From positions 7,378,001 to 7,442,000 of the forward strand of contig OX442319.1 in assembly GCA_949358305.1 (NCBI GenBank): a DNA stretch of 64,000 bases, given 5' to 3'. Made by a program: the position numbers and the translations under genes. Position 1 is the first letter of the stretch. Every line of letters begins with the position of its first letter. The notes under the pieces were generated by a model. That model worked only from the letters and a program-made list of their open reading frames with translations, had not been told where the DNA came from and did not search any database. Positions 26,706 to 56,351 of this stretch are shown piece after piece. Source of the stretch: Strigamia acuminata. Its lineage: Eukaryota > Arthropoda > Chilopoda > Geophilomorpha > Linotaeniidae.

Positions 26706-28203
26706 TGTAGCAAACAACCTTGGATCTCACAGGAAAAGACTGGCGAATTGGTCACCAAACTCTGGAAACCGCCCGAGACTGTATAGTGGATGATGAAACA
26801 AGTTGAATTCTCAGCCCAAGTTGTAGGCCTAAATGCATCTGGAGAAATTAGGCCCAACTGCATTTAGTTGAAGTGATTAAAGCAGCTCTCTGGATACTGG
26901 GGAAAAAACCTTGTGCCTTCAGTGAGGAGGAGAGCATGCAAAACTCTCTACTCACTCATTATCATGTTTCTTGTAGCAGAAAACCAGATCAGAAATGATT
27001 CACCCAAAGCAGAGTAAAAACACATCAACTGGCTTTATTCTTAACAACAGATAACAACTATTGCTTCTTTTGCAACCTACTCTAACAACAGTGCGCCTAG
27101 CAACTAAATCATAGCAACAACAAGCTACAATGCAATGATGCAACAATGGCGTAATTCAATCTGAACTAAAATAGCTTAAAACCTATGTACATTTGTTCTT
27201 AAAACATAAATAGAATTTAGACAAAATAAAGCAATGAAACCAAGGCAAAACTCAATCTAAAATATACTTAACAATTAACAAAGCAAAAAGAAGATTAACA
27301 ACCAATGGCAAGGCAGCCTACCTCAATACTCATCTCTGCACTTGTTTGTAAAGTTAAGTGAAATTAACAAATGTACAGTTAAAACACTTCTATAAAATCA
27401 CAAAGTATTAAAATAAATATTGCTACCCAGCTTGCTATGTTCTAGGAAAATCTCCCAGCAGTGCTCAAACACAAAGAGAACCGCTCCTTTCCAAAATGGC
27501 GGCCAGGCAGTTGCTAACTGCCGTGAATGAGAGCAGAAACGAGTCAAACAGACTTCCAGGGTCGACCAAGGCATGACAACAGCGCTGGGACTTCCAAACT
27601 CAGTGTGGGGACGTTGCAGGGAAGCCAAACGAGGCGTTTCCTGGTCTCTCTCTCTCCCGAACACGATCCCAATGCGCTCATGTGCACTCAAATGCCAAGG
27701 ACACCCAAAACCGTTTGTTTCTTGCTGTCCCACGTCTCCAATGAGCATCAAAACACTAAAACATCCAGCAAAGGTTAGCAACCGTCAAAACAATATGTAA
27801 AACCTCTTTAAAACTAATAAATACACAGTTTCCTGAATCCAGTTGACCTATGCTATGGCGATTATGCTGAGAATATACACTCAGCTCATTCACAAGTGTA
27901 CTGGAACCCGAACCGAACACAAAAACGTCTCAAAAGCAAATAACAGAGGTAAACAACTAATAACAAATACTAAAACAACCACAAAACGATCAAAGACATA
28001 TCCCCTGACCAATTCCAGGTGCGATCGACAACACGACAACCGCCGAGGTCTGCTCTGCATGCGACCGTCGGTCAAAACCGGCAACTGGACATCTCAGATA
28101 TGTCCCAAACTCATGGTCAAAACTATGGACTAAAATTAAAAAGATCTTCTACCATTTTCAGAGGTGAAACGCGAGTCTTCTAATCTTTTTGTTGCGTCCT
28201 TGC
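26706..28203 (-). repeat. Element B 5' LTR, diverged subfamily, outer end truncated
   Basis: Inner end TGTAGCAAAC and following bases match the LTR at 759. The middle differs strongly. The outer end keeps GCAAGGACGCAACAAAAAGAT (sense) but lacks about seven terminal bases where X sequence starts at 28203. It contains AAAATGGCGGCC near 27494. The two LTRs of B differ far more than its pol differs from A's, so B is probably a recombinant. Confidence 0.8.
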
Positions 28204-29120
28204 CCTCACTCTTACCTCAAAAAATTAACACGGGAAATAAAAATACAGGGTGCTTAGAATAAACCCAAGATATGGGGGGTTCAGATAAATATCGAATGTC
28301 CTTGATTGGATAACAACAAGAAACTAACCCCTCCATTGGAAAATAGTAGAATGTGGAATAATTGGTCTTGACAAGGTTTTCTTTTTAAACAAAGTTGAAG
28401 GAATTTTCCAAGGCAGAATTAAGATAGGAAAATATTAGAGATTTACAGAGCTGATAGTAAAAGTTGTTGTCTAAAACAAGTGAAGTGGATTAGCAAATAA
28501 GAGAAGTCCGTTGTTGCTGGGTCCACGGGTTCGGCAATCTTGACTTCCTCTTTTAAGAATTTAAGAGAATTTTTAAGACATTCGAGAGTTAACAGAAGAC
28601 GATTCCGGTTTGTAAAAGGAATTTTAAGCGGTCCGGAAGTCGTTGTCTCCGAATAAGAAAAGAAAAAGTAGTCAAAGAACATCGGCACGTGAAGTGGTTA
28701 ATTGAGCCGTGTCGAGAGTCACAAGTCGTAAGAATACGACGTCAGGTGAATTGAGTTAGAGTCTGGAATTTAAAAAGAGGCGATCAGATTTTCTCAAGAG
28801 AAGCGATTAAAGGCTGTGAATCGAAAATAATTTCGTTTGCATAAATAATAGAGAGTGTCTGTATTTCCTATTCCCCTCCCTCTTAGGTCCTTAAACTCGG
28901 TCTCTTGGAAAAAAGAGAAAAGGCCGAGATGGGAGTCTGAGAGAGGGGATGGGTTGCGGGGGTACAGATAAGAGAGACGGTTGTTCGTCTTAAGCGTCTC
29001 CACAGCGTCACCTGTGGTAATTAGCGAGGTTAGATGGGTTGTCCTAGTAACATAGAGAGGTGGATTTATTAGGATGAAATTTCCCCCCCCCGCTATCCTC
29101 TTTCTTTTTGGTGGGAGCGA
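28203..29120 (+). mobile_element. Element X, 3' internal fragment (truncated)
   Basis: Matches 36291-37208 (offset 8088) and, inverted, 40727-41644. No gene. The left edge abuts the truncated B LTR. A C10 run at 29087-29096 lies close to the LTR, on the strand opposite to the C runs in the inverted copies. Confidence 0.85.
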
Positions 29121-30860
29121 TGTTGCGAGCAGATACGCAACAAAATAATATTCGGAAAAGAGAAAGAAACTTTGATTCATTTGCATGATTCGAATTAACA
29201 TTCGTGGAATGTCTACCTTGCAAGTTGTCGGGGTTTGCTGAATCGTTTCGGTCATTTCGTTTCTTTGAAAGTCTCAATTTCTCGAAGAGTTCGCAACGTT
29301 AGAAATGAGAGGTGAGCGTGTCGCGCCATCTTGTGTTAAGTTCGGGCATCGGATTTATCTAAAAGGAAAAGTTAAGGTTTTTAATTTCGGTTCCGGTTAG
29401 TTTGAATAGTTTTCGAGAACTTATCTGACACGGTACAGGCAGGCATTGGATCGCTAATTAAAGGAGATAACGGCGAGGATGGGTTTCAAAGCGAAAAGCG
29501 AAGTCGTTGTTGATTATCGAGCGGTTTGGTCTGGTCGGAGCGCACTCGGAAAGATGTTGTTTGAACCTGTAGATTTAATTACTTTCGGTTAGAAATCACT
29601 CCGTTGATTAAATGAATAGCTTTAGATGTAATTTACCGTGGATTAAAGTCCGATGATTCGGCGTTGGGCCGAGGCGAAGCTTCGTTGGTCACCAAGGAGC
29701 GTTGATCGGCTAGATCCGCCATTAGAAGACAGTTGGTACAACGAGCCTCGTTCTCGATTGAGATTTAAGTTGATTCAGATTGAGATTTGTTCGACTTAAG
29801 TTTTTGTTGGGTGATTTTAATACGATTTCGAAATGATTAGTTGATTACTTTTTCGTTGTTTTGTGTTTCGGATAAGATTCAATCGTTTGGTCGAGTGTCA
29901 CGTGATTTGGCGAATCGAGCATCTTTTCGGTCGAGTTCGGGTTTTCTAACTCGCCCGCGAATAGCATTGGGTTTAGTGCGGGAGATGGGAATTTAATTCC
30001 GTGCAATGCAAGAGATTTATTAAATGCGCACAAAGAGTGTTGAGGATGCATTATTTGGGTTCTTTATTCGTATTTTTGACAGTGGCCATGTCCGGGATGC
30101 GAGAATTGCGATTGATTAGATTAAGTTTTCATTGACATTGATTAGGCGACGTCTCGTGGCGAAATGTAGCAGTTTTCGGGTTTTCGAGATTTCCATTCGA
30201 TGTTCGTTGAGGTTTTAATTTTGAAGGTTTGCACCTTCTTTCAATTCATTTCAGTGGTATTAAATAATCATTAGGGTTTGGGTTATTTATATGCACGATT
30301 TTCGATAATAAAGATAAGTTTTTTGGTGTAATTTGAACTCTCAACGGCCGTTCTTGTTTTGTTGTACGGAGGCCGTTTTGAGACATTGGGGTTTTAATAT
30401 ATTGTTGTCTATTTTATTAATAATGCACTCGTGTTGACGTTTATTGTTATTAGAGTCCGTGGCACGAGTTTGTACATTGTAATAACAGTTAAGATTTGAT
30501 TATGTACGAATAAACATCGTATCTTTTTATTTCTTCTGAAGTAAATGATTTCCTCCGTAGGCGCGCGCGTTATTCGAATCGCCGCCATTAGAGATTCTTC
30601 ATAATTTGATCGAGATAACTTGAGAACTTCCTACCCTGAGTCATGTTCATTGTGAAGGAACGGTGGTCCAGTTTCCAAGGACCAAGGGATGAAATTGACG
30701 ACGGATCTGTGAGGAAATATGAGATGAGAAAACAAATCGCTCATTATTTCCGACCGAGTCGAATGGAAGAACGCGCCGTGCATCGCTGGGATCATTATAA
30801 TATTTATTACAAAGCTACTAGTTTGCCAGTGGCTTTTGCCACAACGGTCAGCTGGCAACA
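29121..30860 (+). repeat. Element X LTR copy X1 (1740 bp)
   Basis: Begins TGTTGCGAGC and ends GCTGGCAACA. Same length as 37209-38948, 38987-40726 (inverted) and the E-interrupted copy 53691-62136. It contains CCGCCATTAG and AAGATGGCGCG-type motifs. After it comes TAGGCTTTTTT, the spacer that elsewhere leads to the PBS; here element D begins instead. Confidence 0.92.
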
Positions 30861-30870
30861 TAGGCTTTTT

Positions 30871-32228
30871 TGTTTCTGGCAAGGTCGCAGGCGACAACCA
30901 GGCCAGAAGGAGGGGCGGCAATACTTGACTGCTGCTTGGCTAAAACTGATACACAGAAGTTGGCCAAAGACTTGAAGAAATGCAAACACTGGAATTGAAC
31001 TTGCTGCTTCACATGATGATCTGCCACTGGTGAGTTCAAGGAGGAGGAAGGAGGATTTTTCTACTCACTGCACATTGCTTTCTGGTTGTATAGAGAAATG
31101 AGACTTGGAGAGAAATAAAAAGCAACCATTTTATTCTCTAAATTCTTAACAAGACTACTACAATTGAATCACGAGGATTTTACAAAGAAATCACACTTTA
31201 ACAATAATAAGAAACAACAAGTGTAACTATCTCCACATTGTATAAGGACACTTGCACTTAAAGTTACAGAGGTCTCTAAGTGCTTGTAAAGAGAAATAAG
31301 TACTGCTGGCACAACAAAACTACCGTAGAAGTTAATAGTTGAAAACACATAAGCCTAACAGCAAGTATTTGACATTAAATGCAAAAGTATACATTAACAA
31401 CAGTCTCTAAACACAATGCTCATTGAGAACTAAATTATTCACTCTAAAACACACTGAACAACTCATAAAATAGAGAAAAGAATAAGTAAAGACATTTTAG
31501 ACCAATGAGCTGGCAACTTTACAGTAAGTGCAGAAGTTAAGTTATAAATCAACACAGATAAATCTTAAACTTAACACTTTTACATTGCATAATAATTAAG
31601 TGATTAATTATTAATCAGAACCCACAAAAACTCTTTGGGATTAAACATTTTCTCCTCTCTTTACAGATACAAGTAGACCACTCCCACAGTAATGGCCGAC
31701 AATGTAAACAGAGATCACTTGCAGGAAGATAGAAAGGCTTGAAATTAGCTCACTAGACAGGCTACACACAATCTAAGTTAACAAAACGCTTAATTGGTTA
31801 GTAATATACAGAAAACAAACAGAAATTGATTGAAACAGCTTAAAACTGATAATAACATACATTTCTCATTCTAGTACCCTTTTGCTGTCTGAGAGCATCA
31901 TTACACCTTGTCACTACATTGACAGTAGTGGACTGGAAACAGGAAAACACTTGGAAACATCAAAACATGCATAACACAGGTAAACAAGATAGAAAATAAA
32001 TTCTAAGTGGATAAATATCTAATGTAAAAACTCTTTTCTTCCCAGATTTATCCGGTCAGATCAACCAGTACTGAGAAATTCACTCAAACTAACTCAAAGA
32101 AGACTTATATTCAGATAAGTGTCTAATTAAATTCCCAATCTAAGATAAATATTAAAAACCCTTTTTAATAATTCCAGATGACTAATTTTTAAGACGTTTA
32201 GCAGCTTTCCTTTATGTTGCTAGCAACA
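30871..32228 (-). repeat. Element D 3' LTR (1358 bp)
   Basis: Plus-strand ends TGTTTCTGGC and TGTTGCTAGCAACA. The latter is a 14-nt perfect palindrome at the sense 5' end of the LTR. Parts align with E's LTR (for example the ATTGTATAAGGACA stretch near 31238). It contains GTAATGGCCGAC near 31691. Confidence 0.85.
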
Positions 32229-32263: not shown

Positions 32264-35200
32264 TCATTTAGTTTGATTACTTCTGGTCTTTGATGATAAT
32301 ATTTGGGAGACCTCTTTCACCTTTTCGTATTCCACTCTGGGTGGCATGATTCTTTGACGGATCAAATTTGGTATCCACGGAGGTATTCTTCGGTTGACAA
32401 TCATACAACTAAGTCGAATAATTCCGTTGATGATTTTCCTTTTCGTCTCTAGGGACTTCATGGGCTTTGAGAAACATACTCGACAGGTTGGTTTGTATTT
32501 GTCGATCCCTCCTATCATCTTGACTCTGGTTTCGTGCGAAATTCGTCTTGAAAATTCAGCTTTATCTCCGCAAAAATAACATTTTGCTTGTAGTTTCACA
32601 ACAGACTCGGCTAGTGGAACTAACTTGGATATCTGATCAAATGGCTTCCTCTTGAAGTCGACGTCTAATGCGGCGACTATTACCTTTTTCTTTTGCTCAG
32701 CCATTTCATTTGAAAAAGTAAAAATGTCGGGAAAAAACTGTCCTTCGTCAATTCCGATTGCCTTCACTAATTTCGTTTTTTCCACAGCATTGATTAGGCT
32801 ACTGGTCGCGATTGCTTCTCGTCGATGACCGTCGTGGGTCACGACTTCGGTTTTACTGTAACGATCGTCATTGGAGTGTTTAATTAGCAGGGACGACGTC
32901 TTCTCTTCCTTTTCTAAAAGCTTCAATAACTTGGTCGTTTTCCCCGCATACATTGGACCAATGATGAGATGAATTCCCTTTTGATTGGTTGACAAATCAA
33001 TTTTATTTTTCCAGAAATTCAGAATCACGTTTCCACTCCATCTCACGATTGCACACAATTTGGGTAAACTGGGCACTTGGTTTGTAAGTAATTCGACGTT
33101 CTTTCTCCCTGACTCTAACTGATTTCGCCCTCGTAATTCCGGCTTCATGTCCGAGCTTGGAGTTCTGTTGACCAATCCTCCATCCTTGAACGACTTTTTC
33201 GTTTTTTGGAGGGTGGTGTCCAGTTCCTCTTTCTCCAGACCACTGGAGAGGCTCGCGGCAAAACAAGAAGGTGTGACGTCTGTCTGTTTATTCACACCGG
33301 GTTCGCCATTTATGTTGGGCAGTGATTTCGGAATTAATTGGACTATTTTGTTTTCGTCATTTTCAGGTTGATTTGAGATCACTTCTTCTTTGGACTCGAC
33401 CGCCATGCAAGAAATGTTGCACGCTGCCATGTTTTCTTCAAGCGGGTTGTTTGGTTTCAGTCGACCGTTTAGAATCCACCCAAAAATTGTCTCCATTAAT
33501 CCCAACTCGTCGTTGATTTTTCGGCTTCCACCTTGACAAATCTTCCACCATGCGTTGCTTCCTAATAAGACGTCAATGTCTTCCGATTCTGACGGATGTA
33601 TCTCAGCCATCTCAAGTCCGAGTGATTGGACTTGCTTTATGGCTTCTGCTCCAATTATCCCTTTGACTTTCGGGAGTGTGTCGGTTTCTAATGCAAGGAT
33701 TGATGTCTTTTTTGTTCCGTGTCTTGATTGTAGTTCGAATCTAAAGACATCATGTGTCGTCGGAACTGGCTTTTTGTTGAGCAGACACTGTGTCATCGTG
33801 TGTAGTGTCTCGATCTTTTGCATCCGGAATTTATTTACTAGTCTCTTCGTGACGTAGGAGCGATGGCTTCCTGGATCTAGTAATCCGCGGACGGGGTACA
33901 TGTCTCCATTTTTCTTCACAAAAAGAGCAGTGAAGACCATCAGTTGAATCTCCACCGACTCGGTAAGCGATACATTAGTAGACACGTTTTCTTCTTTTGG
34001 TGTAATCGCTTTTTCTTTGTTGTTTTTGTTGCAGATCGATGTGTGATGTCTTCCACCACACAAGCGACAACAAAACTTCACGGTACATTCTTTGGCTGTG
34101 TGGTTATATCTCAAGCAGTTGAAACAAAGTCGTTTCTTCTTCACTATTTCGATCCTCGCTGGTACATCGAGATCCGCATCACAATTTGCGTGTGCGTGAT
34201 CACCATCACAATAAGCGCAGGCGGGTTTGCGGTTTGGATTTGACTTGGAATTCATACTCAATTTTCCATTCTCGGAAGTCACGAATGAGGACATGGTTCC
34301 AGTTGGTCTTTCTCTTGTTTCCTTTGAAGTTTTCTCAAATTTTTCTGACTTCTTCAGATGAGCGCGCTTAAGGAGAACGCTTTCTTCCGACAATTCAGCC
34401 AGTTGTATCTCGGTTGCTACGAAGTCCAGAAAAACGTTAACATCATCAACTTTTCCTTGATGCTTTCGGTAAAAACGTTGGGAGATCTCCGGTGGAAATT
34501 TTCTAAGTAGTTCTGGAATAAGGTACGTTCCAGTAGTGTCAACTGACACAGACAGTTGCGCCATGGTCCGGACAGCAGATGCCAATGACGTGAATAGAGC
34601 TTTGAGTGGCTCGATTGGGTAGAGATCGAAAACGGGTTTCGACTCCCTAATCATCTTTGAAATAGCATTTCTCTGCGTGTTTTCAGAACCGAATAGACTC
34701 TCCAATGTATTTTTCGCTAATGGGTAGGCGTCATCAGTTATTGGGTACGACTTGATTGCGGATTCTGCAGCCCCAGTGCAGCATGACCTCAGATATATAA
34801 GCTTTTCCACGTTCGAAAGCTCCGTGTTCTGATCAACTGCTGATTCAAATAAATTCGCAAAGCCTCTATATTCAGTTGCATCGCCACTAAATTTGGCAAT
34901 GTCGGTTTTCGGCAATCTCGTGTTTCTCCTAGCTAAAGCGGAAGTCTGGTTTAAACTGGAATTCTGTCCCGGATGGGAACCAAATTGCCCTGCCATTTTT
35001 CCAGACACTTTTGCTCTTTGCTTCAATAAATTTACTCTGGTTCTAATGTCTTCAATTCGTTGAAGCCCCGCTAAATAATCCTCTCTTTTTGACTCGTTTT
35101 TAAGATCTTTCAATTCATCGGCGAGATCGCTCAATTGCTGGTCAACCGTTATTTGCATGGCTTCCAGCTCTCCTCCGTCTAGAATGTTGACTGAAGATCC

Positions 35201-35281
35201 CAGCAGATCCTCGGCTCCTTGAGCCTTTGCTTTCCAAATGACCTCCTTTTCCTCGAGATCAGCAGCGGATAATGTAGCCAT
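32264..35281 (-). CDS. Element D Gag-protease fused to a TK1-type thymidine kinase (1005 aa)
   Basis: The first ATG is at 35281; the frame is open three codons further up from a GTG. N-terminal BEL Gag (DUF1759-like) is followed by three zinc knuckles (CAYCDGDHAHANC, CFNCLRYNHTAKEC, CRLCGGRHHTSIC) and a protease region with DPGSHRSY, ending at ETIFGWILNG, the point where RT starts in A and F. After a linker of about 130 aa comes a thymidine kinase domain from about residue 770: P-loop GPMYAGKTT (about 32936-32962), DEGQFFPD (catalytic Glu in the family), VVAALDVDFKRKPF, LVPLAESVVKL, and two Cys-x2-Cys pairs (CYFC, CRVC) as in the TK1 zinc site. Known reaction: thymidine plus ATP to dTMP. All these residues look intact. 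The last 60-70 aa (RRIPPWIPNLIRQRI) are not TK but recur in E. RT, RNase H and integrase are missing. I infer the enzyme supplies dTTP for cDNA synthesis. Confidence 0.9.
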   Translation of the reverse strand: MATLSAADLEEKEVIWKAKAQGAEDLLGSSVNILDGGELEAMQITVDQQLSDLADELKDLKNESKREDYLAGLQRIEDIRTRVNLLKQRAKVSGKMAGQFGSHPGQNSSLNQTSALARRNTRLPKTDIAKFSGDATEYRGFANLFESAVDQNTELSNVEKLIYLRSCCTGAAESAIKSYPITDDAYPLAKNTLESLFGSENTQRNAISKMIRESKPVFDLYPIEPLKALFTSLASAVRTMAQLSVSVDTTGTYLIPELLRKFPPEISQRFYRKHQGKVDDVNVFLDFVATEIQLAELSEESVLLKRAHLKKSEKFEKTSKETRERPTGTMSSFVTSENGKLSMNSKSNPNRKPACAYCDGDHAHANCDADLDVPARIEIVKKKRLCFNCLRYNHTAKECTVKFCCRLCGGRHHTSICNKNNKEKAITPKEENVSTNVSLTESVEIQLMVFTALFVKKNGDMYPVRGLLDPGSHRSYVTKRLVNKFRMQKIETLHTMTQCLLNKKPVPTTHDVFRFELQSRHGTKKTSILALETDTLPKVKGIIGAEAIKQVQSLGLEMAEIHPSESEDIDVLLGSNAWWKICQGGSRKINDELGLMETIFGWILNGRLKPNNPLEENMAACNISCMAVESKEEVISNQPENDENKIVQLIPKSLPNINGEPGVNKQTDVTPSCFAASLSSGLEKEELDTTLQKTKKSFKDGGLVNRTPSSDMKPELRGRNQLESGRKNVELLTNQVPSLPKLCAIVRWSGNVILNFWKNKIDLSTNQKGIHLIIGPMYAGKTTKLLKLLEKEEKTSSLLIKHSNDDRYSKTEVVTHDGHRREAIATSSLINAVEKTKLVKAIGIDEGQFFPDIFTFSNEMAEQKKKVIVAALDVDFKRKPFDQISKLVPLAESVVKLQAKCYFCGDKAEFSRRISHETRVKMIGGIDKYKPTCRVCFSKPMKSLETKRKIINGIIRLSCMIVNRRIPPWIPNLIRQRIMPPRVEYEKVKEVSQILSSKTRSNQTK

Positions 35282-35473
35282 AATACGCACCGAGAAATTG
35301 AGAATTCAAGGATCAGTTCAGGATTCAAAATCAACTTAACTGACTAAATTGGTTAACAAGAAATTGTCTAATTCTTTTACACTCTAGGATTTACTGAACA
35401 CACAAAAACAGGATGGATATACACGAACTGTTAACAGGATTAAAACACACGGGATGTTAACAGGATTGGCACA
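35282..35473 (-). other. Element D remaining leader
   Basis: Short non-coding stretch up to the switch into X sequence. No PBS or CACAACGCA box is visible, because the 5' part is lost. A CTGTTAACAGGATT-type direct repeat occurs near 35428 and 35456. Confidence 0.6.
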
Positions 35474-37208
35474 CACGTATGGGTTACGTTGTCCTTTTAG
35501 GGTTAGAAAATACATACAGAAGCAAATAGAATAGAAAACCTTGACCTCTTAAACCTTCATAACAGTCAAACTAGATAATAGAAGTTTCAAGCCATTTAGA
35601 TGAATGAATCGCTTTTCCCCTCGGGATTAGACGAAAATGGAAGTTTCTCCTATTTAATGCAGTTATTTAGATCTAAAACTAATGCGGGAGTATGTCGGGA
35701 CCTGTTCATGTCAGCTTATCTAATGTGACAAGGACAGTGCTTTCATGCACACAATTCAGATATAAAGTCCCTCTACACCCCTTCTCTCTATATGATTCTA
35801 ATGGTTCAATTTCCAGGTTAGTTCCCCGCACAAAGAAATAAATAGTTATATTTTACAATATATAAGCTCCGCACTTAAGTTAACTTGATATTCATACTTA
35901 TTGACACGAAATAACCCCTTTATTCTAATGGTTCCTCGTTTGAATGTTCGATTTTTCGACATGCAAGATGGCAAACACCAATGGGTTGCTCGAATCCATT
36001 AGAGACCTCCAGCCAGAGTTAGCAGGAGTAGGGACCCGAATAGCAATAGAGCTTCCCTTCTTGTTTCTTTTTTTTGAGTCGGGAGGGAATTATATGAATA
36101 TATAAAATAAAGTTGGAGTTGGAAACGACAAGATGTGTCCGGGAAAGTCCTGCCGGCCACCGGCGGAGTGCACGCCGTCGGTCGCCGAAGAGGAACGGTC
36201 ACTAAACTTTTTTGATCAATTTCCTGTTTTCCTAATCCTAAGATTTTATATTGTGAAAAAAAATAACAAATAGAAGAGTCCTCATAGCCTCCCTCACTCT
36301 TACCTCAAAAAATTAACACGGGAAATAAAAATACAGGGTGCTTAGAATAAACCCAAGATATGGGGGGTTCAGATAAATATCGAATGTCCTTGATTGGATA
36401 ACAACAAGAAACTAACCCCTCCATTGGAAAATAGTAGAATGTGGAATAATTGGTCTTGACAAGGTTTTCTTTTTAAACAAAGTTGAAGGAATTTTCCAAG
36501 GCAGAATTAAGATAGGAAAATATTAGAGATTTACAGAGCTGATAGTAAAAGTTGTTGTCTAAAACAAGTGAAGTGGATTAGCAAATAAGAGAAGTCCGTT
36601 GTTGCTGGGTCCACGGGTTCGGCAATCTTGACTTCCTCTTTTAAGAATTTAAGAGAATTTTTAAGACATTCGAGAGTTAACAGAAGACGATTCCGGTTTG
36701 TAAAAGGAATTTTAAGCGGTCCGGAAGTCGTTGTCTCCGAATAAGAAAAGAAAAAGTAGTCAAAGAACATCGGCACGTGAAGTGGTTAATTGAGCCGTGT
36801 CGAGAGTCACAAGTCGTAAGAATACGACGTCAGGTGAATTGAGTTAGAGTCTGGAATTTAAAAAGAGGCGATCAGATTTTCTCAAGAGAAGCGATTAAAG
36901 GCTGTGAATCGAAAATAATTTCGTTTGCATAAATAATAGAGAGTGTCTGTATTTCCTATTCCCCTCCCTCTTAGGTCCTTAAACTCGGTCTCTTGGAAAA
37001 AAGAGAAAAGGCCGAGATGGGAGTCTGAGAGAGGGGATGGGTTGCGGGGGTACAGATAAGAGAGACGGTTGTTCGTCTTAAGCGTCTCCACAGCGTCACC
37101 TGTGGTAATTAGCGAGGTTAGATGGGTTGTCCTAGTAACATAGAGAGGTGGATTTATTAGGATGAAATTTCCCCCCCCCGCTATCCTCTTTCTTTTTGGT
37201 GGGAGCGA
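35474..37208 (+). mobile_element. Element X 3' internal part, copy X2
   Basis: Inverted equivalent of 40727-42461. No credible ORF. It ends with CTTTCTTTTTGGTGGGAGCGA directly before the LTR, the X version of the box before the 3' LTR. Confidence 0.85.
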
Positions 37209-38948
37209 TGTTGCGAGCAGATACGCAACAAAATAATATTCGGAAAAGAGAAAGAAACTTTGATTCATTTGCATGATTCGAATTAACATTCGTGGAATGT
37301 CTACCTTGCAAGTTGTCGGGGTTTGCTGAATCGTTTCGGTCATTTCGTTTCTTTGAAAGTCTCAATTTCTCGAAGAGTTCGCAACGTTAGAAATGAGAGG
37401 TGAGCGTGTCGCGCCATCTTGTGTTAAGTTCGGGCATCGGATTTATCTAAAAGGAAAAGTTAAGGTTTTTAATTTCGGTTCCGGTTAGTTTGAATAGTTT
37501 TCGAGAACTTATCTGACACGGTACAGGCAGGCATTGGATCGCTAATTAAAGGAGATAACGGCGAGGATGGGTTTCAAAGCGAAAAGCGAAGTCGTTGTTG
37601 ATTATCGAGCGGTTTGGTCTGGTCGGAGCGCACTCGGAAAGATGTTGTTTGAACCTGTAGATTTAATTACTTTCGGTTAGAAATCACTCCGTTGATTAAA
37701 TGAATAGCTTTAGATGTAATTTACCGTGGATTAAAGTCCGATGATTCGGCGTTGGGCCGAGGCGAAGCTTCGTTGGTCACCAAGGAGCGTTGATCGGCTA
37801 GATCCGCCATTAGAAGACAGTTGGTACAACGAGCCTCGTTCTCGATTGAGATTTAAGTTGATTCAGATTGAGATTTGTTCGACTTAAGTTTTTGTTGGGT
37901 GATTTTAATACGATTTCGAAATGATTAGTTGATTACTTTTTCGTTGTTTTGTGTTTCGGATAAGATTCAATCGTTTGGTCGAGTGTCACGTGATTTGGCG
38001 AATCGAGCATCTTTTCGGTCGAGTTCGGGTTTTCTAACTCGCCCGCGAATAGCATTGGGTTTAGTGCGGGAGATGGGAATTTAATTCCGTGCAATGCAAG
38101 AGATTTATTAAATGCGCACAAAGAGTGTTGAGGATGCATTATTTGGGTTCTTTATTCGTATTTTTGACAGTGGCCATGTCCGGGATGCGAGAATTGCGAT
38201 TGATTAGATTAAGTTTTCATTGACATTGATTAGGCGACGTCTCGTGGCGAAATGTAGCAGTTTTCGGGTTTTCGAGATTTCCATTCGATGTTCGTTGAGG
38301 TTTTAATTTTGAAGGTTTGCACCTTCTTTCAATTCATTTCAGTGGTATTAAATAATCATTAGGGTTTGGGTTATTTATATGCACGATTTTCGATAATAAA
38401 GATAAGTTTTTTGGTGTAATTTGAACTCTCAACGGCCGTTCTTGTTTTGTTGTACGGAGGCCGTTTTGAGACATTGGGGTTTTAATATATTGTTGTCTAT
38501 TTTATTAATAATGCACTCGTGTTGACGTTTATTGTTAGTAGAGTCCGTGGCACGAGTTTGTACATTGTAATAACAGTTAAGATTTGATTATGTACGAATA
38601 AACATCGTATCTTTTTATTTCTTCTGAAGTAAATGATTTCCTCCGTAGGCGCGCGCGTTATTCGAATCGCCGCCATTAGAGATTCTTCATAATTTGATCG
38701 AGATAACTTGAGAACTTCCTACCCTGAGTCATGTTCATTGTGAAGGAACGGTGGTCCAGTTTCCAAGGACCAAGGGATGAAATTGACGACGGATCTGTGA
38801 GGAAATATGAGATGAGAAAACAAATCGCTCATTATTTCCGACCGAGTCGAATGGAAGAACGCGCCGTGCATCGCTGGGATCATTATAATATTTATTACAA
38901 AGCTACTAGTTTGCCAGTGGCTTTTGCCACAACGGTCAGCTGGCAACA
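37209..38948 (+). repeat. Element X LTR copy X2 (1740 bp)
   Basis: TGTTGCGAGC ... GCTGGCAACA; length equal to the other X LTRs. It is followed by spacer TAGGCTTTTTTG and a PBS. Confidence 0.93.
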
Positions 38949-38960
38949 TAGGCTTTTTTG

Positions 38961-38974
38961 TGGTGCCGTGACCA
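38961..38974 (+). promoter_or_regulatory. Truncated tRNA-His primer binding site at the palindrome centre
   Basis: TGGTGCCGTGACCA equals the first 14 nt of the tRNA-His PBS. Its TGGT and ACCA ends are complementary and form the innermost pairs of the giant inverted repeat. Confidence 0.75.
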
Positions 38975-38986
38975 CAAAAAAGCCTA

Positions 38987-43467: not shown

Positions 43468-44386
43468 TGTTGCTAGCAACCGCGATGGAATCGTTAGCGG
43501 TTCAACTTTTGGTTTTTAGACAGAAAGTGCCTTTAGATTTTCAATAATCTTTTTGTCTTCATTTAGTATTTTCTAGCCTGATCGCCAGGAATTTGGAGCA
43601 CTTACCTGCACTGATTTCTTGGTCTTGACCGTCTGGACGAGCTGCGTTGCCATGCCAACTCGTCACTGTTTTAGATTTAAGTTTTAGTAGAGCTTAGAGC
43701 ATTTTCTCCTATGTTTGTATAAGTTTTTAGGCCTCCCGTGTTTGAGCGCCATCTCTTGTTCTGCTTGGTAATTAGTTATTGTTGTTGATATGCCTTATTG
43801 ACAAGTGTTAAAGTGTTATTTGATTTAAGTGACACTGCTCATGCCTGTCAAAGCTTTGAGCTGTGTCTGAGGTTTAGTTTTGGGCCTTTCAGGCCAGAGT
43901 GTTCTTTGCCTGAGTGCATCTGTTACTTATAAGTATTTATTTCCTATGTATTTGCTTTATTTCCATGTAACTGATGCATTTCGCTCATTTTGTTCTTGCC
44001 TATTGTCGCGCGCCTAACAATGAGCGCGTGCCTCTTGTGTTGTTGAAACTTAACCCTAACGGTTGAGTTTTATTTTCCTCTCTCTCACTTTGGAATAAAA
44101 CTGTTGTTTTCTTCCCCAAACCAGTCTATTTCTTCTGCCTACATGATGTGTAGTGAGTAGAGAACCGGGCGCGCTTTCTCCTCCTACTGGCCGCCACTTT
44201 GTGAGTTGATTCGAACGTTTATGCCTGAGATCGTTAACCCTAATTTGCCGTGGTTGGGCCCGACCTTGTCTGGTTGCGCATGCGCACGTCCACACACCCA
44301 CTATACTTTCACTTTTCTCCTGGGATTTCTTCCGCCATCGTCGCTGACCGTTTCCCCGTCCTGGTCTGTTGCCAGTGCTAGCAACA
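43468..44386 (+). repeat. Element F 5' LTR (919 bp)
   Basis: Begins TGTTGCTAGCAACC and ends TGCTAGCAACA; equals 50430-51348 in length. AATAAA at about 44093 is a candidate polyadenylation signal. GCGCCATCT and GGCCGCCACTTTG motifs are present. Confidence 0.95.
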
Positions 44387-44398
44387 GAATTCACTTCG

Positions 44399-44423
44399 TG
44401 GTGCCGTTTTGCTTGACCAGGAT
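44399..44423 (+). promoter_or_regulatory. Element F primer binding site, tRNA-His type with an internal insertion
   Basis: TGGTGCCG and TGACCAGGAT are both present but separated by about seven T-rich extra bases. The outer blocks fit tRNA-His exactly. It lies 12 nt after the LTR. Confidence 0.6.
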
Positions 44424-44872
44424 AGATGACCGTTTTCGCCAGTTGTGTGCGCCTGATCATCGCGTGCGACTGCGAGCTTCGACCGTCTGTTTCCTGCCTG
44501 AGTTTGCGCCAGTGTTTAGTCCAGTCGTCGCTGTCGTGTGTGTCCAGCGTGTGGTTCCTTGTAGGCAATCGAGCTGCAGAGAAGCCGCATCCAGTTTACG
44601 CCGTCGTGTCGAGTGGATCGTCCAGTTGGCGTCCGAATTTCGTCGTGTGATCACAACGCAGCGTGCATTTGTGCTTTCCATTCTGGAAGATGACATTTCT
44701 TGTGTCTTTTCTTGGCTTTTTGGGGGTTTTTTCGAGTCGATTAGCTTAGTGTGTGTATCAGATTCGAGGAAAAAGTGTGTCTTTTTGTGTAAAGAGTATC
44801 TTATCGTGTTAGCTCCGTATAACTGCTGGAAAAAGCAGGGGAGTTTAAGTCGCTTTAGATAAGATAGTTTCT

Positions 44873-44930
44873 AGACGTTGTATCGTCTCGTTAGTTAGCT
44901 AAAAGATAGTTTCTAGACGTCTGACCGTCT
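44873..44930 (+). promoter_or_regulatory. Paired leader hairpins of element F
   Basis: AGACG-TTGTAT-CGTCT (44873-44888) and AGACG-TCTGAC-CGTCT (44915-44930). Position before gag and stem-loop size (5-bp stem, 6-nt loop) mirror the pair in A, with different stem bases. Confidence 0.45.
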
Positions 44931-45104
44931 TGTTAGTTGTGTGTTTCTCAGTGAAGCTCACGCGCCATTGGTTGCTATCAAACCGTGGTGTTGTTTTCTT
45001 GCTTACGCCAGTGGCAGTTGTGTCGCCTTGGTGTCTTGCCGTGTGTTAAAAGTTACCGTGCTATCTAATTGTCTTTGCTTTCCTACTTGCAGAGGACAGT
45101 TGGC

Positions 45105-48100
45105 ATGGCAACTCAGACGGGAACGGGTTCCAGACCCACCACTCCGGGTGGAACTCCAATCTCTCCGCGAGCTCCTACGCCAGAGCAAATGGACTTGGTG
45201 GAGGCTCGCTACAATTCGCTGGTCCAAGCATTGGATCAATTCCTGACGAGGTCGCGTAGCTTGACCGATCCCGGAGAAGTCGAAGCAGCTCTCTTGTCTG
45301 CAGAGCAGCAAGAGCGTCGGCTTTTGAACGATGCGAATACGTTGCAGGCTTATTGGACTCGTGCAACATATTTGCAAGGAATAGCTCAGATAGAGGAATT
45401 GTCTTCTCAGGTGGATCATCTGCGTAACAGACATCAGGTGTCTCAGAGGATGGTCACTCATTGGTCAGCGTCGCAGTTGAACCAAACGATTAATACGAGT
45501 GCGTTGTCTGGCTTTCCAGGGGCTGGAACGACGGTTAATACCCGCCGGCCTCCTAATACGAAATTGCCTACGCTGCAGACAGTGAAGTTCACTGGAGATG
45601 TGGTCAAATTCCGCTCCTTCTTGAGTAGCTTTGACACATCAGTGCACACAAACTCGGAGTTGTCCGAGACAGAGAAGTTGCAATACTTACAGTCTATGTG
45701 TGAAGGTGATGCGGCAACGCTCATCTCTTCCTATCAGTTGGTTGATGGGTCGTATATTCTTGCTAGAGAAGAGCTCATCCGCAGTTACGGAGGTGATGAG
45801 GCTCAAAGAACGGCTCTCATGAAGAGCATAAAAGATATGAAGCCGATTCTTGACGTGCATCCTACCAAGGTGCTCAAGTCGCAGCTTGCCCGTGTTTCCA
45901 CGACAGTTCGCATGCTGGAGCAACTGCAAGTTCCGGTTCAGACTGCGGGGTACGTGCTAGCTGACGACGTTCTCAGGAAGTTCCCGTATCGAATGGTTCT
46001 TCGATATTACGAGGTTAAGGGAACCAAGTCACAGAATTTGGTGAACATGTTGGACTTCTTTGCGGAAGAACTTAAGATTCTTGAGCGCATTGAAGAGGTT
46101 ATCGGGTTCACACACCTGCCGTCCTTGAAGCAGGTTTCCGAAAAGGCTGACCGGTCTGAGAAAGAGCGTAAAGGTGCCATGGCGTCTTTGGTCGCTGCTC
46201 AGAGTCCGAAAGGGCCGTTAAGTCCAAGACAGGGGCCAACCAAGCCCGCTTGTCCGTTCTGTAAGGCTGATCATTTGGCTCAAGATTGTACAAAGGTTGT
46301 AGAGGTAGAGGCAAGAACTGAAATAGTTCGCCGTGACAGGCTCTGTTTCAATTGTCTTCGCAGCGGTCACTCATTCAAGCAGTGTCCGAGTCGTTTTGCC
46401 TGCCGTTCGTGCGGTGGTCGTCACCATACCGCAATTTGTCGGGGTGCTAAGGACAAATCTCCTGTTCTTCAAGACAGACCAAGGGAATTGCAGGTCGTTA
46501 CGAACGTTACATTGTCCGTTGCTTCATCTTTGCAGCTGATGATCTTTTCAGCAGAACTGACCACTAAGTCAGGTGGGTCGCATCGCATTCGAGGCATGCT
46601 GGACCCAGGAAGCCATCGCTCATACATTCTGAAGAGCTTGGCCGACCGCATTAAGTTGCGACGATGTGGTGTCGTGCACGCTTCTACTCAGCGCTTTAAT
46701 GAGCGTGATCCAGTGCCGACAGATTACGACGTTTTCTCCATACGTCTTAAGTCTCGCCATAGCGCGAAAAACATCACAGTGTCCGCTCTGAGTGTGGAAC
46801 ATCTTCCGCAGGTGTCGGGAATCGTTCACGCCGAGACCATTGAGAAGGTCAAAGCCCTAGGTCTTGAGTTGGCCGAGGACTTACCGTCGACCGCCCAGCA
46901 CATTGACGTCCTGTTAGGGGTTGATGTTTGGTGGCAGGTCTGTCTAAACGGTCGCAAGCGACTCGACCAGTCGTCCGGGTTGATTAACACCATATTCGGA
47001 TGGATTTTGTCGGGTGCAGCTGGATCTGCGGATTTGCTTCTCGATGACACGTCTTCAGTAGCTTGCTGTGCGACGTGCGACGTTTCTCCTGACAAAGAGC
47101 TGGAACGCCTATGGTCACTTGAAGCTGTGGGTATTCGTGCAGGGGAGCGCGATTCTGATTTCGTTCGAGATCGATTCGAACAGTCCACTGTTCGCCTCGA
47201 AGACGGTCGTTACCAGGTACGCTTACCTTTTAATGAGCATGTTACCGGACTTGAGTCCAATTGGGAGCTGGCAGTCACGCAGCTTTCCAATACGCTGAAG
47301 CGCATAGATGCGAGTACTGACCACAAGAAACGCTATCATGACGCGATGTGGGCATATGTTCGCGAGGATCATGCCGAAGTGGTTCCTCCGGCCGAACGTT
47401 TCTGGACAGAAGGGGTTTACAATATCCCACATCACCCTGTTATTAAGGAGGACCGTGAGACCACGAAGTTCAGGGTCGTTTTTAACGCCTCTTCTTCAAA
47501 GAAGGGCGCGCGGTCGCTCAATGACTGTTTATACCCGGGGCCGTCTCTCAATCCCGATATCATCCGGGTTTTGATTAGGTTTCGTTTGATGTGCATTGCT
47601 ATCATTGCCGACATCAAACAGGCATTTCTGCAAGTATCGATCGATCCGAAGCATCGCAATTTCTTGCGCTTTCTTTGGGTGGCGGATGAATATTTCGCCG
47701 ACGTGTATTCGTGGCGAAACCTGTGGGACAACTTGGTTGTCCTACGGATGACGGTGGTTCCGTTCGGTGTAAACTCATCACCATTTTTACTTTGCGCAAC
47801 GATTCGTGCGCAAGGGCAACTTCATGCTGCCTCACACCCGAAAGAGGCGGATGCTCTCGATAAGGGTATCTTCATGGACGACCTTACGTCTGGCGCTGAT
47901 CGTCCGCCAGCAGCTGTTGCTCATTGTTTGAATTTACGCAATATTCTCGACGACGCAAAGTTACCACTTGTTAAGTGGGCAGCGTCGAATGGTGAAGTCT
48001 TTGGTTCCCTGAAAGAGGAAGGGTTCCATATGAGAGCTGATTCGTTCGAGAATCTCGGTGTTATTAAAATGCTGGGCATTCTCTGGGACGTCCAGCAAGA

Positions 48101-50375
48101 CGCGATTCTTTTTCGAGTTCCCGAGTTCGATGAGGTCCCTAGCACTAGGCGGGGAGTCCTCTCGCTCGTCGCGTCCCTGTTTGACCCGTTAGGTTTCCTG
48201 GCCGCGATCGTTTTGCCGATGAAGCTGCTGATGCAGAGCTTCTGGGGCCGAGCTTTCGCCTGGGACCAGGTGTTACCGGACGACGACCGTGTTCAGGTTG
48301 CTCGTTGGTATGCCGACCTTCAACATCTGAAAGAAGTAAAGGTGCAGAGATGGGTGGGCACGTATTCTGGTGAAGGTCTAAGTTTAGAAGTGTATTGCGA
48401 TGCGAGTCCTCGAGCTTATGGATGCGCAGTTTACATTCGGAATTCTTCCGGTGTAAGCAAGCTTCTCGTCGGAAAGAGCAGGATCGCTCCGTTGGACAAG
48501 CTTACGCTCCCGAGACTTGAGCTGACCGCCACGGTGATTGGTGTTCGCATGCTCGAATACATTCAGACCGATTTTTTACCTGATTTCCCTATCTCGAGTG
48601 TAAGATTTTTTACCGACTCTATGGTCGCATTGGGTTGGATCCGATCAGAAAAGAACCGTTGGAAACCCTATGTTTCGAATCGAGTAGCCGAGGTCCTCGA
48701 CAAGTCAAGGGTTGACCAATGGTCTTACGTCCCAACCGCAAAAAATCCTGCCGACATTTTGACACGTCCTTGCGACGTACCGACCTTGATTTCAAGTCAC
48801 CTTTGGTGGAATGGTCCAGACCCGAAGGAGTTCGACCAGGTCGACGCCCCTCCGGTGGTCCTTCCCAAAGAAGAAGAGAAGCTGGTCTCTTCTGCAGTGA
48901 CGTTGTACGATGACTTTCTCGATCAGTTTTTTAAGCGATTCCGCTCATTCAATCGCTTGACTCGCGTACTCGCGTTCATTCGCCGATGGCGCTTTCCCGC
49001 GCCCGGGAAGGAATTGAATGTGTATGAGTTGGAGGAGGCGGAACGGAAGCTGATCTACTGGTCACAGCGCATGCATTTTTTAGAAGAATGTGTAGCCGTT
49101 GAACGCAAAGAGGATGTTGAGAAGTCATCCCCCCTCAGAAATTTCGACATATTCCTGGACGAAACCGGTTTGCTACGACTCCGAAGTCGTCTTGCCAAAT
49201 CGTTTCTTCCGTTTGATGAGGTTTATCCGATTTTGCTACACCCGAGTAGTTGGGTGACCCGGTTACTTATCCGTCGTGAGCACGTTTTGCTCTTACACGG
49301 CGACTTAAGTGAAACTCTCTACCATATGAGAAACCGTTTTTGGATCATACGCGGTCGCCGAACAGTGCAGTCGGTCTTGCGAAGCTGTCTCGTCTGCAGG
49401 AGAGGGAGGCTGATGCGCGAGGACCCGCCTACCGGTGATCCGCCGTCCGAGCGTGTTACACCTGCGGCTCCGTTCCAACACACCGGGATCGACCATTTGG
49501 GTCCGGTGGTGCTGGGGAGTGGGCGCAAGGCTTCTAAAGCCTACATACTGTTGTTTACCTGTTTAGTTACGCGTAGTGTTCACCTTGAGGTGTCCGAGGA
49601 TCTCTCGGTGGAGAAATTCTTGCTTGCGTTTAGACGTTTCGCAGCCCGCTTTGGCTATCCAGCTAAAGTCTTCTCCGATAACTCGAAGACTTTTTCTCGC
49701 GGTGCCCAAGAGATTCAATCTTGGGGGAAGTTGGTCGCCAAGGAAGGGATGCGTACGCTCTTGTCTGAGAAGCGAGTCTTATGGACGTTTATTCCCCCCT
49801 TGTCCCCCTGGGCAGGAGGAGCTTGGGAGCGCTTAGTACGGTCCGTAAAAGACAAGCTACGCAAGACTTTATTGCGACAAACCATCGACTTGGAGTCCTT
49901 GCAGACTCTAGTGGCCGAGATAAGTTCAGTGCTTAACTCGCGTCCGCTATCTTATGTTCACGAGGAGGTGGACGGTGGTCGTATCCTGAGCCCGGAGAAC
50001 TTCCTCACCGGCGGTACGACTAAATACGTCATCAATCGTCCCGTTCACGCGATTCGTCAGAAAGATTTGAGACGACTTGACCACAAGCGCAGACTCGCCT
50101 TATGGGAGTTCTGGCGTTTGTGGAAAGAAAGTTATCTTAAGCAATTACGTAATTTTCATGAAGTCAAAGGAGATCGACATCCCCGCAACCCCGAAGTGGG
50201 ACAAATTGTTTTACTTGAAAAGGTGGGGTCAAACCCATACTTCTGGCCCTTAGCGCGAGTTGACGTTGTGTATCCCGGCGACGACGGGATAATCCGTGTC
50301 GTGCGAGTCACGTCTGCTGAAGGGAAACAATTTCTCCGTTCGGTCAAGCACATCCGTGTGCTTGAGTTAGATTGA
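45105..50375 (+). CDS. gag-pol: Element F Gag-Pol polyprotein (1756 aa)
   Basis: Start chosen at the ATG at 45105; the frame is open from 45069 but the upstream codons fall in a splice-acceptor-like sequence. Order: Gag (DUF1759-like, about 1-370); zinc knuckles about 382-450 (CPFCKADHLAQDC, CFNCLRSGHSFKQC, CRSCGGRHHTAIC); protease DUF1758 with DPGSHRSY about 500; RT with FRVVFNASS (about 788), ADIKQAFLQ (about 835) and FMDD at 923-926 (A has YMDD); RNase H from YCDASP (about 1097) through LPRLELTA and FTDSMVAL; H2C2 zinc region with CLVCR; integrase Asp in GIDHLG (about 1462), Asp in FSDNSK (about 1525), Glu in GGAWERL (about 1575); DUF5641-like end. It supplies all functions for reverse transcription and insertion. 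No defect seen. Confidence 0.97.
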   Translation: MATQTGTGSRPTTPGGTPISPRAPTPEQMDLVEARYNSLVQALDQFLTRSRSLTDPGEVEAALLSAEQQERRLLNDANTLQAYWTRATYLQGIAQIEELSSQVDHLRNRHQVSQRMVTHWSASQLNQTINTSALSGFPGAGTTVNTRRPPNTKLPTLQTVKFTGDVVKFRSFLSSFDTSVHTNSELSETEKLQYLQSMCEGDAATLISSYQLVDGSYILAREELIRSYGGDEAQRTALMKSIKDMKPILDVHPTKVLKSQLARVSTTVRMLEQLQVPVQTAGYVLADDVLRKFPYRMVLRYYEVKGTKSQNLVNMLDFFAEELKILERIEEVIGFTHLPSLKQVSEKADRSEKERKGAMASLVAAQSPKGPLSPRQGPTKPACPFCKADHLAQDCTKVVEVEARTEIVRRDRLCFNCLRSGHSFKQCPSRFACRSCGGRHHTAICRGAKDKSPVLQDRPRELQVVTNVTLSVASSLQLMIFSAELTTKSGGSHRIRGMLDPGSHRSYILKSLADRIKLRRCGVVHASTQRFNERDPVPTDYDVFSIRLKSRHSAKNITVSALSVEHLPQVSGIVHAETIEKVKALGLELAEDLPSTAQHIDVLLGVDVWWQVCLNGRKRLDQSSGLINTIFGWILSGAAGSADLLLDDTSSVACCATCDVSPDKELERLWSLEAVGIRAGERDSDFVRDRFEQSTVRLEDGRYQVRLPFNEHVTGLESNWELAVTQLSNTLKRIDASTDHKKRYHDAMWAYVREDHAEVVPPAERFWTEGVYNIPHHPVIKEDRETTKFRVVFNASSSKKGARSLNDCLYPGPSLNPDIIRVLIRFRLMCIAIIADIKQAFLQVSIDPKHRNFLRFLWVADEYFADVYSWRNLWDNLVVLRMTVVPFGVNSSPFLLCATIRAQGQLHAASHPKEADALDKGIFMDDLTSGADRPPAAVAHCLNLRNILDDAKLPLVKWAASNGEVFGSLKEEGFHMRADSFENLGVIKMLGILWDVQQDAILFRVPEFDEVPSTRRGVLSLVASLFDPLGFLAAIVLPMKLLMQSFWGRAFAWDQVLPDDDRVQVARWYADLQHLKEVKVQRWVGTYSGEGLSLEVYCDASPRAYGCAVYIRNSSGVSKLLVGKSRIAPLDKLTLPRLELTATVIGVRMLEYIQTDFLPDFPISSVRFFTDSMVALGWIRSEKNRWKPYVSNRVAEVLDKSRVDQWSYVPTAKNPADILTRPCDVPTLISSHLWWNGPDPKEFDQVDAPPVVLPKEEEKLVSSAVTLYDDFLDQFFKRFRSFNRLTRVLAFIRRWRFPAPGKELNVYELEEAERKLIYWSQRMHFLEECVAVERKEDVEKSSPLRNFDIFLDETGLLRLRSRLAKSFLPFDEVYPILLHPSSWVTRLLIRREHVLLLHGDLSETLYHMRNRFWIIRGRRTVQSVLRSCLVCRRGRLMREDPPTGDPPSERVTPAAPFQHTGIDHLGPVVLGSGRKASKAYILLFTCLVTRSVHLEVSEDLSVEKFLLAFRRFAARFGYPAKVFSDNSKTFSRGAQEIQSWGKLVAKEGMRTLLSEKRVLWTFIPPLSPWAGGAWERLVRSVKDKLRKTLLRQTIDLESLQTLVAEISSVLNSRPLSYVHEEVDGGRILSPENFLTGGTTKYVINRPVHAIRQKDLRRLDHKRRLALWEFWRLWKESYLKQLRNFHEVKGDRHPRNPEVGQIVLLEKVGSNPYFWPLARVDVVYPGDDGIIRVVRVTSAEGKQFLRSVKHIRVLELD

Positions 50376-50429
50376 CGTTTGAGAAGTCGCAGTTCTTCCG
50401 GCGTTGTCTTCTTCCCGCCGGCAAGACGC
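50376..50429 (+). promoter_or_regulatory. Element F box before the 3' LTR
   Basis: GTCTTCTTCCCGCCGGCAAG, then ACGC and the LTR. Same pyrimidine plus GCCGGCAA plan as D and E; no sense purine tract. Confidence 0.5.
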
Positions 50430-56318: not shown

Positions 56319-56351
56319 AAGATTGCCGGCCGAAAGAAAGAAACCGACATC
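56319..56351 (-). promoter_or_regulatory. Element E box before the 3' LTR
   Basis: In sense: TTTCTTTCGGCCGGCAATCT, then T and the LTR. Matches D and F. Confidence 0.5.

What the first reader, a model, noticed from the sequence alone, without database searches (positions are those of the whole stretch)
32264..35281. Retrotransposon polyprotein with a TK1-type thymidine kinase in place of RT, RNase H and integrase
Seen: one open frame joins BEL Gag, zinc knuckles and a DPG protease to a domain with GPMYAGKTT, DEGQFFPD, LVPLAESVVKL and two Cys-x2-Cys pairs. These are the P-loop, catalytic Glu region, thymidine-binding region and zinc site of TK1-family kinases. Known: TK1 makes dTMP and is cell-cycle limited in animals. 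Inferred: packaging a kinase with Gag could raise dTTP for reverse transcription in resting cells, or favour this element in a shared particle. I know of no BEL element described with a thymidine kinase.
Basis: partly seen in the sequence, partly recalled or inferred. Interest (0 to 1): 0.95.

Follow-up and report, generated by a model that had tools for sequence, protein, structure and literature searches.

The report
Retrotransposon carrying a thymidine kinase
In a centipede genome, jumping elements of the BEL/Pao type have swapped their copying enzymes for a thymidine kinase, the enzyme that recycles one DNA building block, and many near-identical copies suggest that these incomplete elements have spread recently.

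Summary
Window 35281-32264 (minus strand) is one open frame with BEL/Pao Gag, zinc knuckles, DPG protease and a TK1-type thymidine kinase (PF00265, E 2.4e-54), without RT, RNase H or integrase. The host is the centipede Strigamia acuminata. It is no assembly join: 84 of 150 scored TK matches lie in open frames of 995-1013 codons, in two subfamilies whose TK domains share 56% of residues with saturated silent change. Two copies examined outside the window are complete LTR elements with identical LTR pairs and 4-bp target duplications; cis-sequences resemble those of canonical BEL elements, so mobilisation in trans is the best inference. The window copy lacks its own 5' LTR. TK is under purifying selection (dN/dS 0.11 between A2 types) and keeps P-loop, catalytic Glu and zinc Cys. 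Against a simple story, sister subfamily A3, whose TK is no longer recognisable, has also multiplied, so intact TK is not needed for movement. The same TK lineage sits as a free gene in three other repeats and differs from the host's spliced TK1. Kinase activity, packaging and any dTTP benefit are untested. My paper searches listed no TK-bearing retrotransposon.

The parts
32264..35281 (-). Gag-protease-TK open frame, 1005 codons from ATG, stop included
34466..34891 (-). Gag core, DUF1759 (PF03564), residues 134-275
   Evidence: E 1.7e-17
34028..34138 (-). two zinc knuckles (LCFNCLRYNHTAKEC; CRLCGGRHHTSIC), residues about 385-421
   Evidence: read from the frame; weak PF00098
33464..33961 (-). 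aspartic-protease region with LLDPGS, residues about 444-609; homologous to that of the canonical BEL
   Evidence: 46% identity with the canonical BEL over 222 codons of knuckle plus protease; no Pfam protease hit of its own
32978..33463 (-). fast-evolving linker between protease and TK
   Evidence: 28-30% identity between A1 and the A2 types, 58% between A2 and A2b; dN/dS 0.37-0.43
32471..32974 (-). TK1-type thymidine kinase domain, residues 773-940
   Evidence: PF00265 E 2.4e-54
32936..32959 (-). P-loop GPMYAGKT, residues 778-785
32732..32749 (-). DEGQFF with the catalytic Glu (role recalled), residues 848-853
   Evidence: invariant in alignment A1
32267..32470 (-). C-terminal tail (KRKIINGIIRLS...RIPPWIPNLIRQRI), its core shared by subfamilies A1, A2, A3
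30871..32228 (-). the element's 3' LTR (1358 bp, TGTTGCTAGCAACA...AAACA)
   Evidence: 99.4% identical to the 5' LTR of the copy at C8:6820903-6827492; LTR limits
35471..35477 (-). junction where the 5' LTR and most of the leader are missing and sequence of another repeat (Z) begins
28203..30873 (-). [not shown]
35474..38961 (-). copy of repeat Z upstream of the TK frame; left arm of a 7-kb palindrome (35474-42461)
54855..61556 (-). complete sister element A3: identical LTRs (54855-56318, 60093-61556), TSD GAGC
56352..59027 (-). A3 frame, 891 aa: Gag-protease, a P-loop-like GPMFLGKK, no recognisable TK beyond it, and the shared tail
43468..51348 (+). canonical BEL element: identical LTRs, TSD GGAC, Gag-Pol frame 45069-50375 (1768 aa); example of a possible helper type
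5119..5122 (+). CCTT of the uninterrupted paralogue (in another BEL copy) of the site where the C8:6820903 TK element inserted

Best explanation
A non-autonomous BEL/Pao LTR retrotransposon family in which the polymerase half of the polyprotein was replaced by a captured TK1-type thymidine kinase. Shown: LTR pairs and 4-bp target duplications in the copies examined (one A1, one A2), many near-identical intact frames, Gag, protease and TK in one frame, no Pol, purifying selection on TK, P-loop, catalytic Glu and zinc Cys kept. Inferred from LTR ends, primer site, pre-LTR motif and duplication length: a canonical BEL supplies reverse transcriptase and integrase in trans. Inferred from the fusion to Gag: TK is built into the particle, where the element's protease may release it; it phosphorylates thymidine to dTMP and so raises dTTP for reverse transcription, of itself and of whatever shares the particle. 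Rough likelihoods: architecture and mobility 0.97; mobilised in trans by a BEL polymerase 0.85; active thymidine kinase 0.75; benefit through dTTP for reverse transcription 0.45.
For: PF00265 E 2.4e-54. 92 of 150 scored TK matches (205 candidates) are of this fusion type, by frame length plus the loci read; 84 of the 150 lie in open frames of 995-1013 codons. Of 71 scored Gag-protease relatives (1312 candidates) none has a frame over 1013 codons; 66 of 71 have TK-type lengths. Subfamily A1: C8:6820903-6827492, LTR 1358 bp, identical pair, 4-bp TSD, paralogous empty site. Subfamily A2: C5:12596577-12602700, LTR 956 bp, identical pair, TSD CAGT. The canonical BEL and A3 also have TGTT...AACA ends and 4-bp TSDs; the primer-site start TGGTACCGTGA is shared by A1, A2 and one BEL copy in the window. 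TK dN/dS 0.11 between A2 and A2b, against 0.06 for knuckle plus protease and 0.37 for the linker. P-loop, Glu and zinc Cys invariant; TK1 fold.
Against: A3, in which TK is no longer recognisable, has also multiplied (28 of 30 matches at 98-100% identity, 19 of 30 with the full 892-codon frame; 123 of 123 candidates scored), so active TK is not needed for movement. No expression, packaging or activity data. A helper with the same LTR was not sought, and none shows among the 71 scored Gag relatives; the primer site agrees with one BEL copy only in part, and the canonical BEL at 43468 has another one. The window copy lacks its own 5' LTR. Free TK genes in three other repeats show that TK is not tied to Gag.
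Confidence: 0.6

Rival explanations
1. The kinase acts in the cell, not in the particle: protease-released or unassembled Gag-Pro-TK raises the dTTP pool of germ-line or resting cells, to the benefit of all reverse transcription, or the host tolerates it as extra salvage capacity.
For: TK1 enzymes are soluble cytosolic oligomers (recalled). TK of the same lineage occurs without Gag in repeats B (40), C (13) and D (5) of the 150 scored matches (assigned by frame length and by loci L031-L045).
Against: The fusion to Gag-protease is kept as one frame in two diverged subfamilies.
Confidence: 0.2
2. The C-terminal module now serves assembly, RNA binding or targeting; catalysis is secondary or lost.
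For: A3 keeps an open C-terminal stretch without recognisable TK, and the tail core (..INGIIRLS..RIPPWIPNLIRQRI) is shared by A1, A2 and A3.
Against: P-loop, DEGQFF and the four zinc Cys stand in all 8 repeat rows (A1, A2, A2b, B, C, D) across saturated silent divergence. Single C copies deviate (L043, L044).
Confidence: 0.12
3. A recently captured passenger without function, carried along by copying.
For: Copies within A1 or A3 are mostly 97-100% alike in protein, so selection within them is hard to see.
Against: Between subfamilies TK stands at 56% identity with pS 0.77; dN/dS is 0.11 (A2-A2b TK), 0.17 (A1-L047 TK) and 0.19 (A1 against L046, frame up to its stop).
Confidence: 0.06
4. Assembly join.
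For: The window copy sits beside a 7-kb palindrome with rearranged flanks.
Against: 84 of 150 matches in open frames of 995-1013 codons on many contigs, in two diverged subfamilies; HiFi assembly at 98-fold coverage (PMC10556566); two complete copies with TSDs. Reads across the window's own junctions were not seen.
Confidence: 0.01

Closest known systems
BEL/Pao LTR retrotransposons
   Same: DUF1759 Gag, zinc knuckles, DPG protease, TGTT...AACA LTRs, 4-bp TSD, primer site just after the 5' LTR
   Different: no RT, RNase H or integrase; TK instead
Maize Bs1 and other gene-transducing LTR elements (review PMC7264820, passages seen)
   Same: an LTR element that has transduced host gene sequences; loss of RT and Gag fusion in Bs1 are recalled
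   Different: here a whole TK domain, two diverged subfamilies with many intact copies, selection on the cargo
dUTPase-bearing retroviruses and bdelloid LTR elements (PMC5408684, abstract and passages seen)
   Same: a nucleotide-pool enzyme in the polyprotein; in bdelloids dUTPase lies between protease and RT
   Different: an addition there, a replacement of Pol here; hydrolase versus salvage kinase
Acutely transforming retroviruses with Gag-oncogene fusions (recalled)
   Same: Gag fused to a cellular gene at the expense of pol, helper-dependent
   Different: not oncogenes; families of genomic copies with long divergence
TK1 of animals and poxviruses
   Same: fold, P-loop, catalytic Glu, zinc Cys pairs; 40-51% identity of the 8 repeat rows to the 6 TKs compared, host TK1 among them
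   Different: separate clade, a 2-5 residue deletion after the first helix, Asp for Thr in ALDGT; A1 has Ser at the human Thr163 position

Membership tests
BEL/Pao LTR retrotransposon | Gag of DUF1759 type | tested here: met
   PF03564 E 1.7e-17
BEL/Pao LTR retrotransposon | LTR pair and short target-site duplication | tested here: met
   met in the A1 copy at C8:6820903, the A2 copy at C5:12596577 and A3; the window A1 copy has only its 3' LTR
BEL/Pao LTR retrotransposon | aspartic protease | tested here: met
   DPG region; knuckle plus protease 46% identical to the canonical BEL; no Pfam protease hit of its own
BEL/Pao LTR retrotransposon | RT, RNase H and integrase (autonomous member) | tested here: not met
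   absent from the frame; no frame over 1013 codons among 71 scored relatives of 1312 candidates. Filed as a non-autonomous derivative only
TK1-type thymidine kinase | profile and fold | tested here: met
   PF00265 E 2.4e-54; best PDB matches human TK1
TK1-type thymidine kinase | P-loop, catalytic Glu, zinc-binding Cys | tested here: met
   invariant columns of alignment A1, 21 sequences
TK1-type thymidine kinase | phosphorylates thymidine | not testable with these tools
   needs an assay
Recent capture of the host TK1 gene | closest to the host's own TK1 | tested here: not met
   42-47% identity to host TK1, which is 71% identical to a spider TK1; separate clade 99/96, though one clade with host TK1 is not rejected, p-AU 0.257, so an old capture stays possible

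The most novel reading that the evidence does not exclude
A lineage of thymidine kinase has become mobile cargo in a centipede: it sits in at least four repeat families and, fused to Gag-protease, is built into retrotransposon particles, so that the particle makes its own dTMP during reverse transcription. It would be the first known retroelement enzyme for nucleoside salvage, and a cheating element that pays its helper in dTTP.
Probability: 0.35. Interest if true: 0.92.

Novelty: new variant of a known kind. Interest (0 to 1): 0.82.

Why it matters
dNTP supply limits reverse transcription in resting cells (recalled). Here natural retroelements carry a salvage kinase fused to Gag, under selection and in many intact copies, beside a sister family that has lost it. 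That pair makes the question whether mobile elements gain from their own nucleotide enzymes testable by comparison. It also shows a stable Gag-plus-enzyme architecture, the retrotransposon counterpart of gene-transducing retroviruses, kept over long divergence rather than as a one-off.

Tried and rejected
Rejected: the 2671-bp direct repeats 28203-30873 and 36291-38961 as the element's LTRs (my first reading, notebook entry 1). Genome matches show that they belong to another repeat, Z, and the true LTR is 1358 bp.

Led nowhere: a search of 5.77 billion proteins for other Gag-TK fusions (5 hits from 1200 candidates, none a retroelement by name or Pfam domain); the ends and element type of repeats B, C and D: no LTR pair seen in the stretches fetched; a transposase fragment (PF13843 DDE_Tnp_1_7; piggyBac type is recalled) lies in one C copy. 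A BLAST alignment of the A3 C-terminus with an A2-type TK (25% over 134 residues, E 3e-6) is anchored by the tail and puts GPMFLGKK opposite another part of TK, so how A3 lost its TK is unclear.

Literature, listings only: of the papers found I saw 25 of 1312, 0 of 0, 8 of 8, 10 of 170, 20 of 342, 1 of 1, 0 of 0. None of those listed is, by title and abstract start, about a TK-bearing retrotransposon. The library lacks most subscription journals. In 'BEL/Pao retrotransposons in metazoan genomes' (PMC3118150) I searched six terms only, thymidine among them: 0 occurrences.

Not done: S. maritima and other myriapods (no such genome held here); expression data; read data; a search for a helper with the same LTR.

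Full report
WHAT WAS CHECKED. The frame lies on the minus strand, ATG at 35281 to stop at 32264. Pfam finds DUF1759, the BEL Gag core (E 1.7e-17), and TK (E 2.4e-54, residues 773-940), and no polymerase domain at E up to 1. The region with LLDPGS aligns with that of a canonical BEL in the same window (46% over 222 codons, knuckle plus protease). The TK domain matches human TK1 in the PDB (E 1.7e-41). It keeps the P-loop, the DEGQFF with the catalytic Glu, and the four zinc Cys; these are invariant columns in an alignment with 20 other TKs. The model has mean pLDDT 83.5 and its best Foldseek match is human TK1.

HOST. The window's assembly has 237,517,015 bases, and contig C1 has 66,985,994. 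The genome note of the centipede Strigamia acuminata gives 237,534,282 bp and a longest scaffold of 66,985,994 bp, with 98-fold HiFi coverage (PMC10556566, parts 1 and 2 of 3 read). COX1 agrees: the best hit is Mecistocephalus marmoratus (85%), a geophilomorph centipede (recalled). By length C13 is the Y chromosome and C8 chromosome 6.

NOT AN ARTEFACT. A TK profile search of the genome scored 150 of 205 candidates. By open-frame length, and by the loci read, 92 are Gag-Pro-TK fusions, 84 of them in open frames of 995-1013 codons; 40 are a 190-codon free TK (repeat B), 13 are repeat C, 5 are repeat D. Rows without a fetched locus were assigned by frame length alone, and the ranking favours intact copies. 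A Gag-protease search scored 71 of 1312 candidates: 34 frames of 1013, 13 of 1009, 19 of 995 or 1002, and five shorter (954, 880, 836, 799, 453). None was longer. So no Pol-bearing close relative was seen among those scored.

ANATOMY. The window copy misled me at first: the large repeats around it belong to another repeat, Z. A copy at C8:6820903-6827492 (6590 bp) shows the real element: LTRs of 1358 bp, identical, a 4-bp duplication CCTT, and a paralogous uninterrupted site at window 5119 in another BEL copy. An A2 copy at C5:12596577-12602700 has LTRs of 956 bp, identical, duplication CAGT, inside a satellite array. These two are the only complete A copies I examined end to end. In the window, only the 3' LTR (32228-30871) is present; upstream of 35471-35477 the leader gives way to Z sequence. 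Whether this arose by template switching or by rearrangement I cannot tell.

HELPER. LTR ends (TGTTG or TGTTT ... AACA) and 4-bp duplications are common to A1, A2, A3 and the canonical BEL at 43468-51348. The primer site starts TGGTACCGTGA in A1, A2 and the BEL copy at 5119 onwards, but differs beyond that, and the canonical BEL at 43468 and A3 have other sites. The stretch before the 3' LTR reads CTTTTCGSCGGCAATC in A1 and A2, CGGCCGGCAATC in A3, CCGCCGGCAAG in the canonical BEL. Mobilisation in trans by some canonical BEL is inferred, not shown.

SELECTION. Own NG86 script. Between A2 and its relative A2b: TK dN/dS 0.11, knuckle plus protease 0.06, linker 0.37, tail 0.34. Between A1 and A2 silent sites are saturated (TK pS 0.77, pN 0.28; 56% identity). 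A1 against copy L046, up to its stop, gives 0.19; A1 against L047, TK only, 0.17. TK is thus held much harder than the linker, and somewhat less than the protease.

AGAINST A SIMPLE STORY. Subfamily A3 (window 54855-61556) has identical LTRs and a frame of 891 aa, but Pfam sees no TK in it at E up to 0.1. It keeps a P-loop-like GPMFLGKK and the tail. A BLAST alignment with an A2-type TK (25% over 134 residues) is anchored by the tail and does not pair the P-loops, so A3's C-terminus is either a degenerate TK or what a deletion left. A3 has 30 matches, 28 at 98-100% identity, 19 with the full frame. An intact TK is therefore not required to spread. Either A3 lives on particles of others, or TK serves something other than mobility as such.

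ORIGIN OF THE TK. All 8 TK rows from repeats (A1 two, A2, A2b, B, C, D two) form one side of a branch, 98/93 with 45 other TKs and 99/96 with the host TK1 added and three long branches left out. The host's own spliced TK1 lies at C9 about 8.319 Mb and is 71% identical to a spider TK1; the repeat TKs are 42-47% identical to it. The repeat TKs share a deletion after the first helix and Asp for Thr in ALDGT. So a single old source is likely; that this was the host TK1 is not rejected (p-AU 0.257). The branches are long, so the grouping may owe something to attraction.

WHAT IS KNOWN. Gene capture by LTR elements is known (Bs1 in maize, PMC7264820, passages seen), and so are dUTPase domains in retroviruses and bdelloid LTR elements (PMC5408684, abstract and passages seen). 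None of the papers listed by searches is about a TK-bearing retrotransposon; three of the lists were capped (see Tried and rejected). No Gag-TK fusion came up in the protein search (5 hits from 1200 candidates). I rate it a new variant of a known kind.

MOST LIKELY WORKING. Transcript from the LTR; Gag-Pro-TK assembles with Gag-Pol of a helper; helper RT and integrase copy and insert it (inferred). TK phosphorylates thymidine in or near the particle (inferred from the intact active site). A1 has Ser where human TK1 has Thr163, the site whose change to Ser shifts human TK1 towards a nucleoside analogue, by the title of 2wvj; the substrate range may differ.

Noticed in passing
L031-L033 (repeat B), L034, L035, L039-L045 (repeat C), L036-L038 (repeat D): Free, intronless TK genes of the same lineage in three repeats without Gag; 40, 13 and 5 of 150 scored matches, mostly by frame length. 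Element type unresolved.
   Followed up: partly
L044:8005-8562: Transposase fragment (PF13843 DDE_Tnp_1_7, E 1.5e-13; piggyBac type is recalled) in a copy of repeat C.
   Followed up: no
window 54855-61556: Sister element A3 without recognisable TK; recently multiplied.
   Followed up: partly
window 35474-42461: 7-kb palindrome (99.9%) of repeat Z, centre 38962-38973; head-to-head rearrangement.
   Followed up: partly
C1 64.2-66.5 Mb, C5 12.2-15.5 Mb, C8 6.8-7.5 Mb, C9 0.3-0.7 Mb, C13 (Y) 7.9-10.3 Mb: Gag-Pro-TK matches cluster in a few chromosome regions, the Y among them, and on small contigs (not tested statistically); one A2 copy sits in a satellite array of about 143-bp period.
   Followed up: no
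P0002: A 587-aa unnamed protein with TK and PF05203 domains.
   Followed up: no
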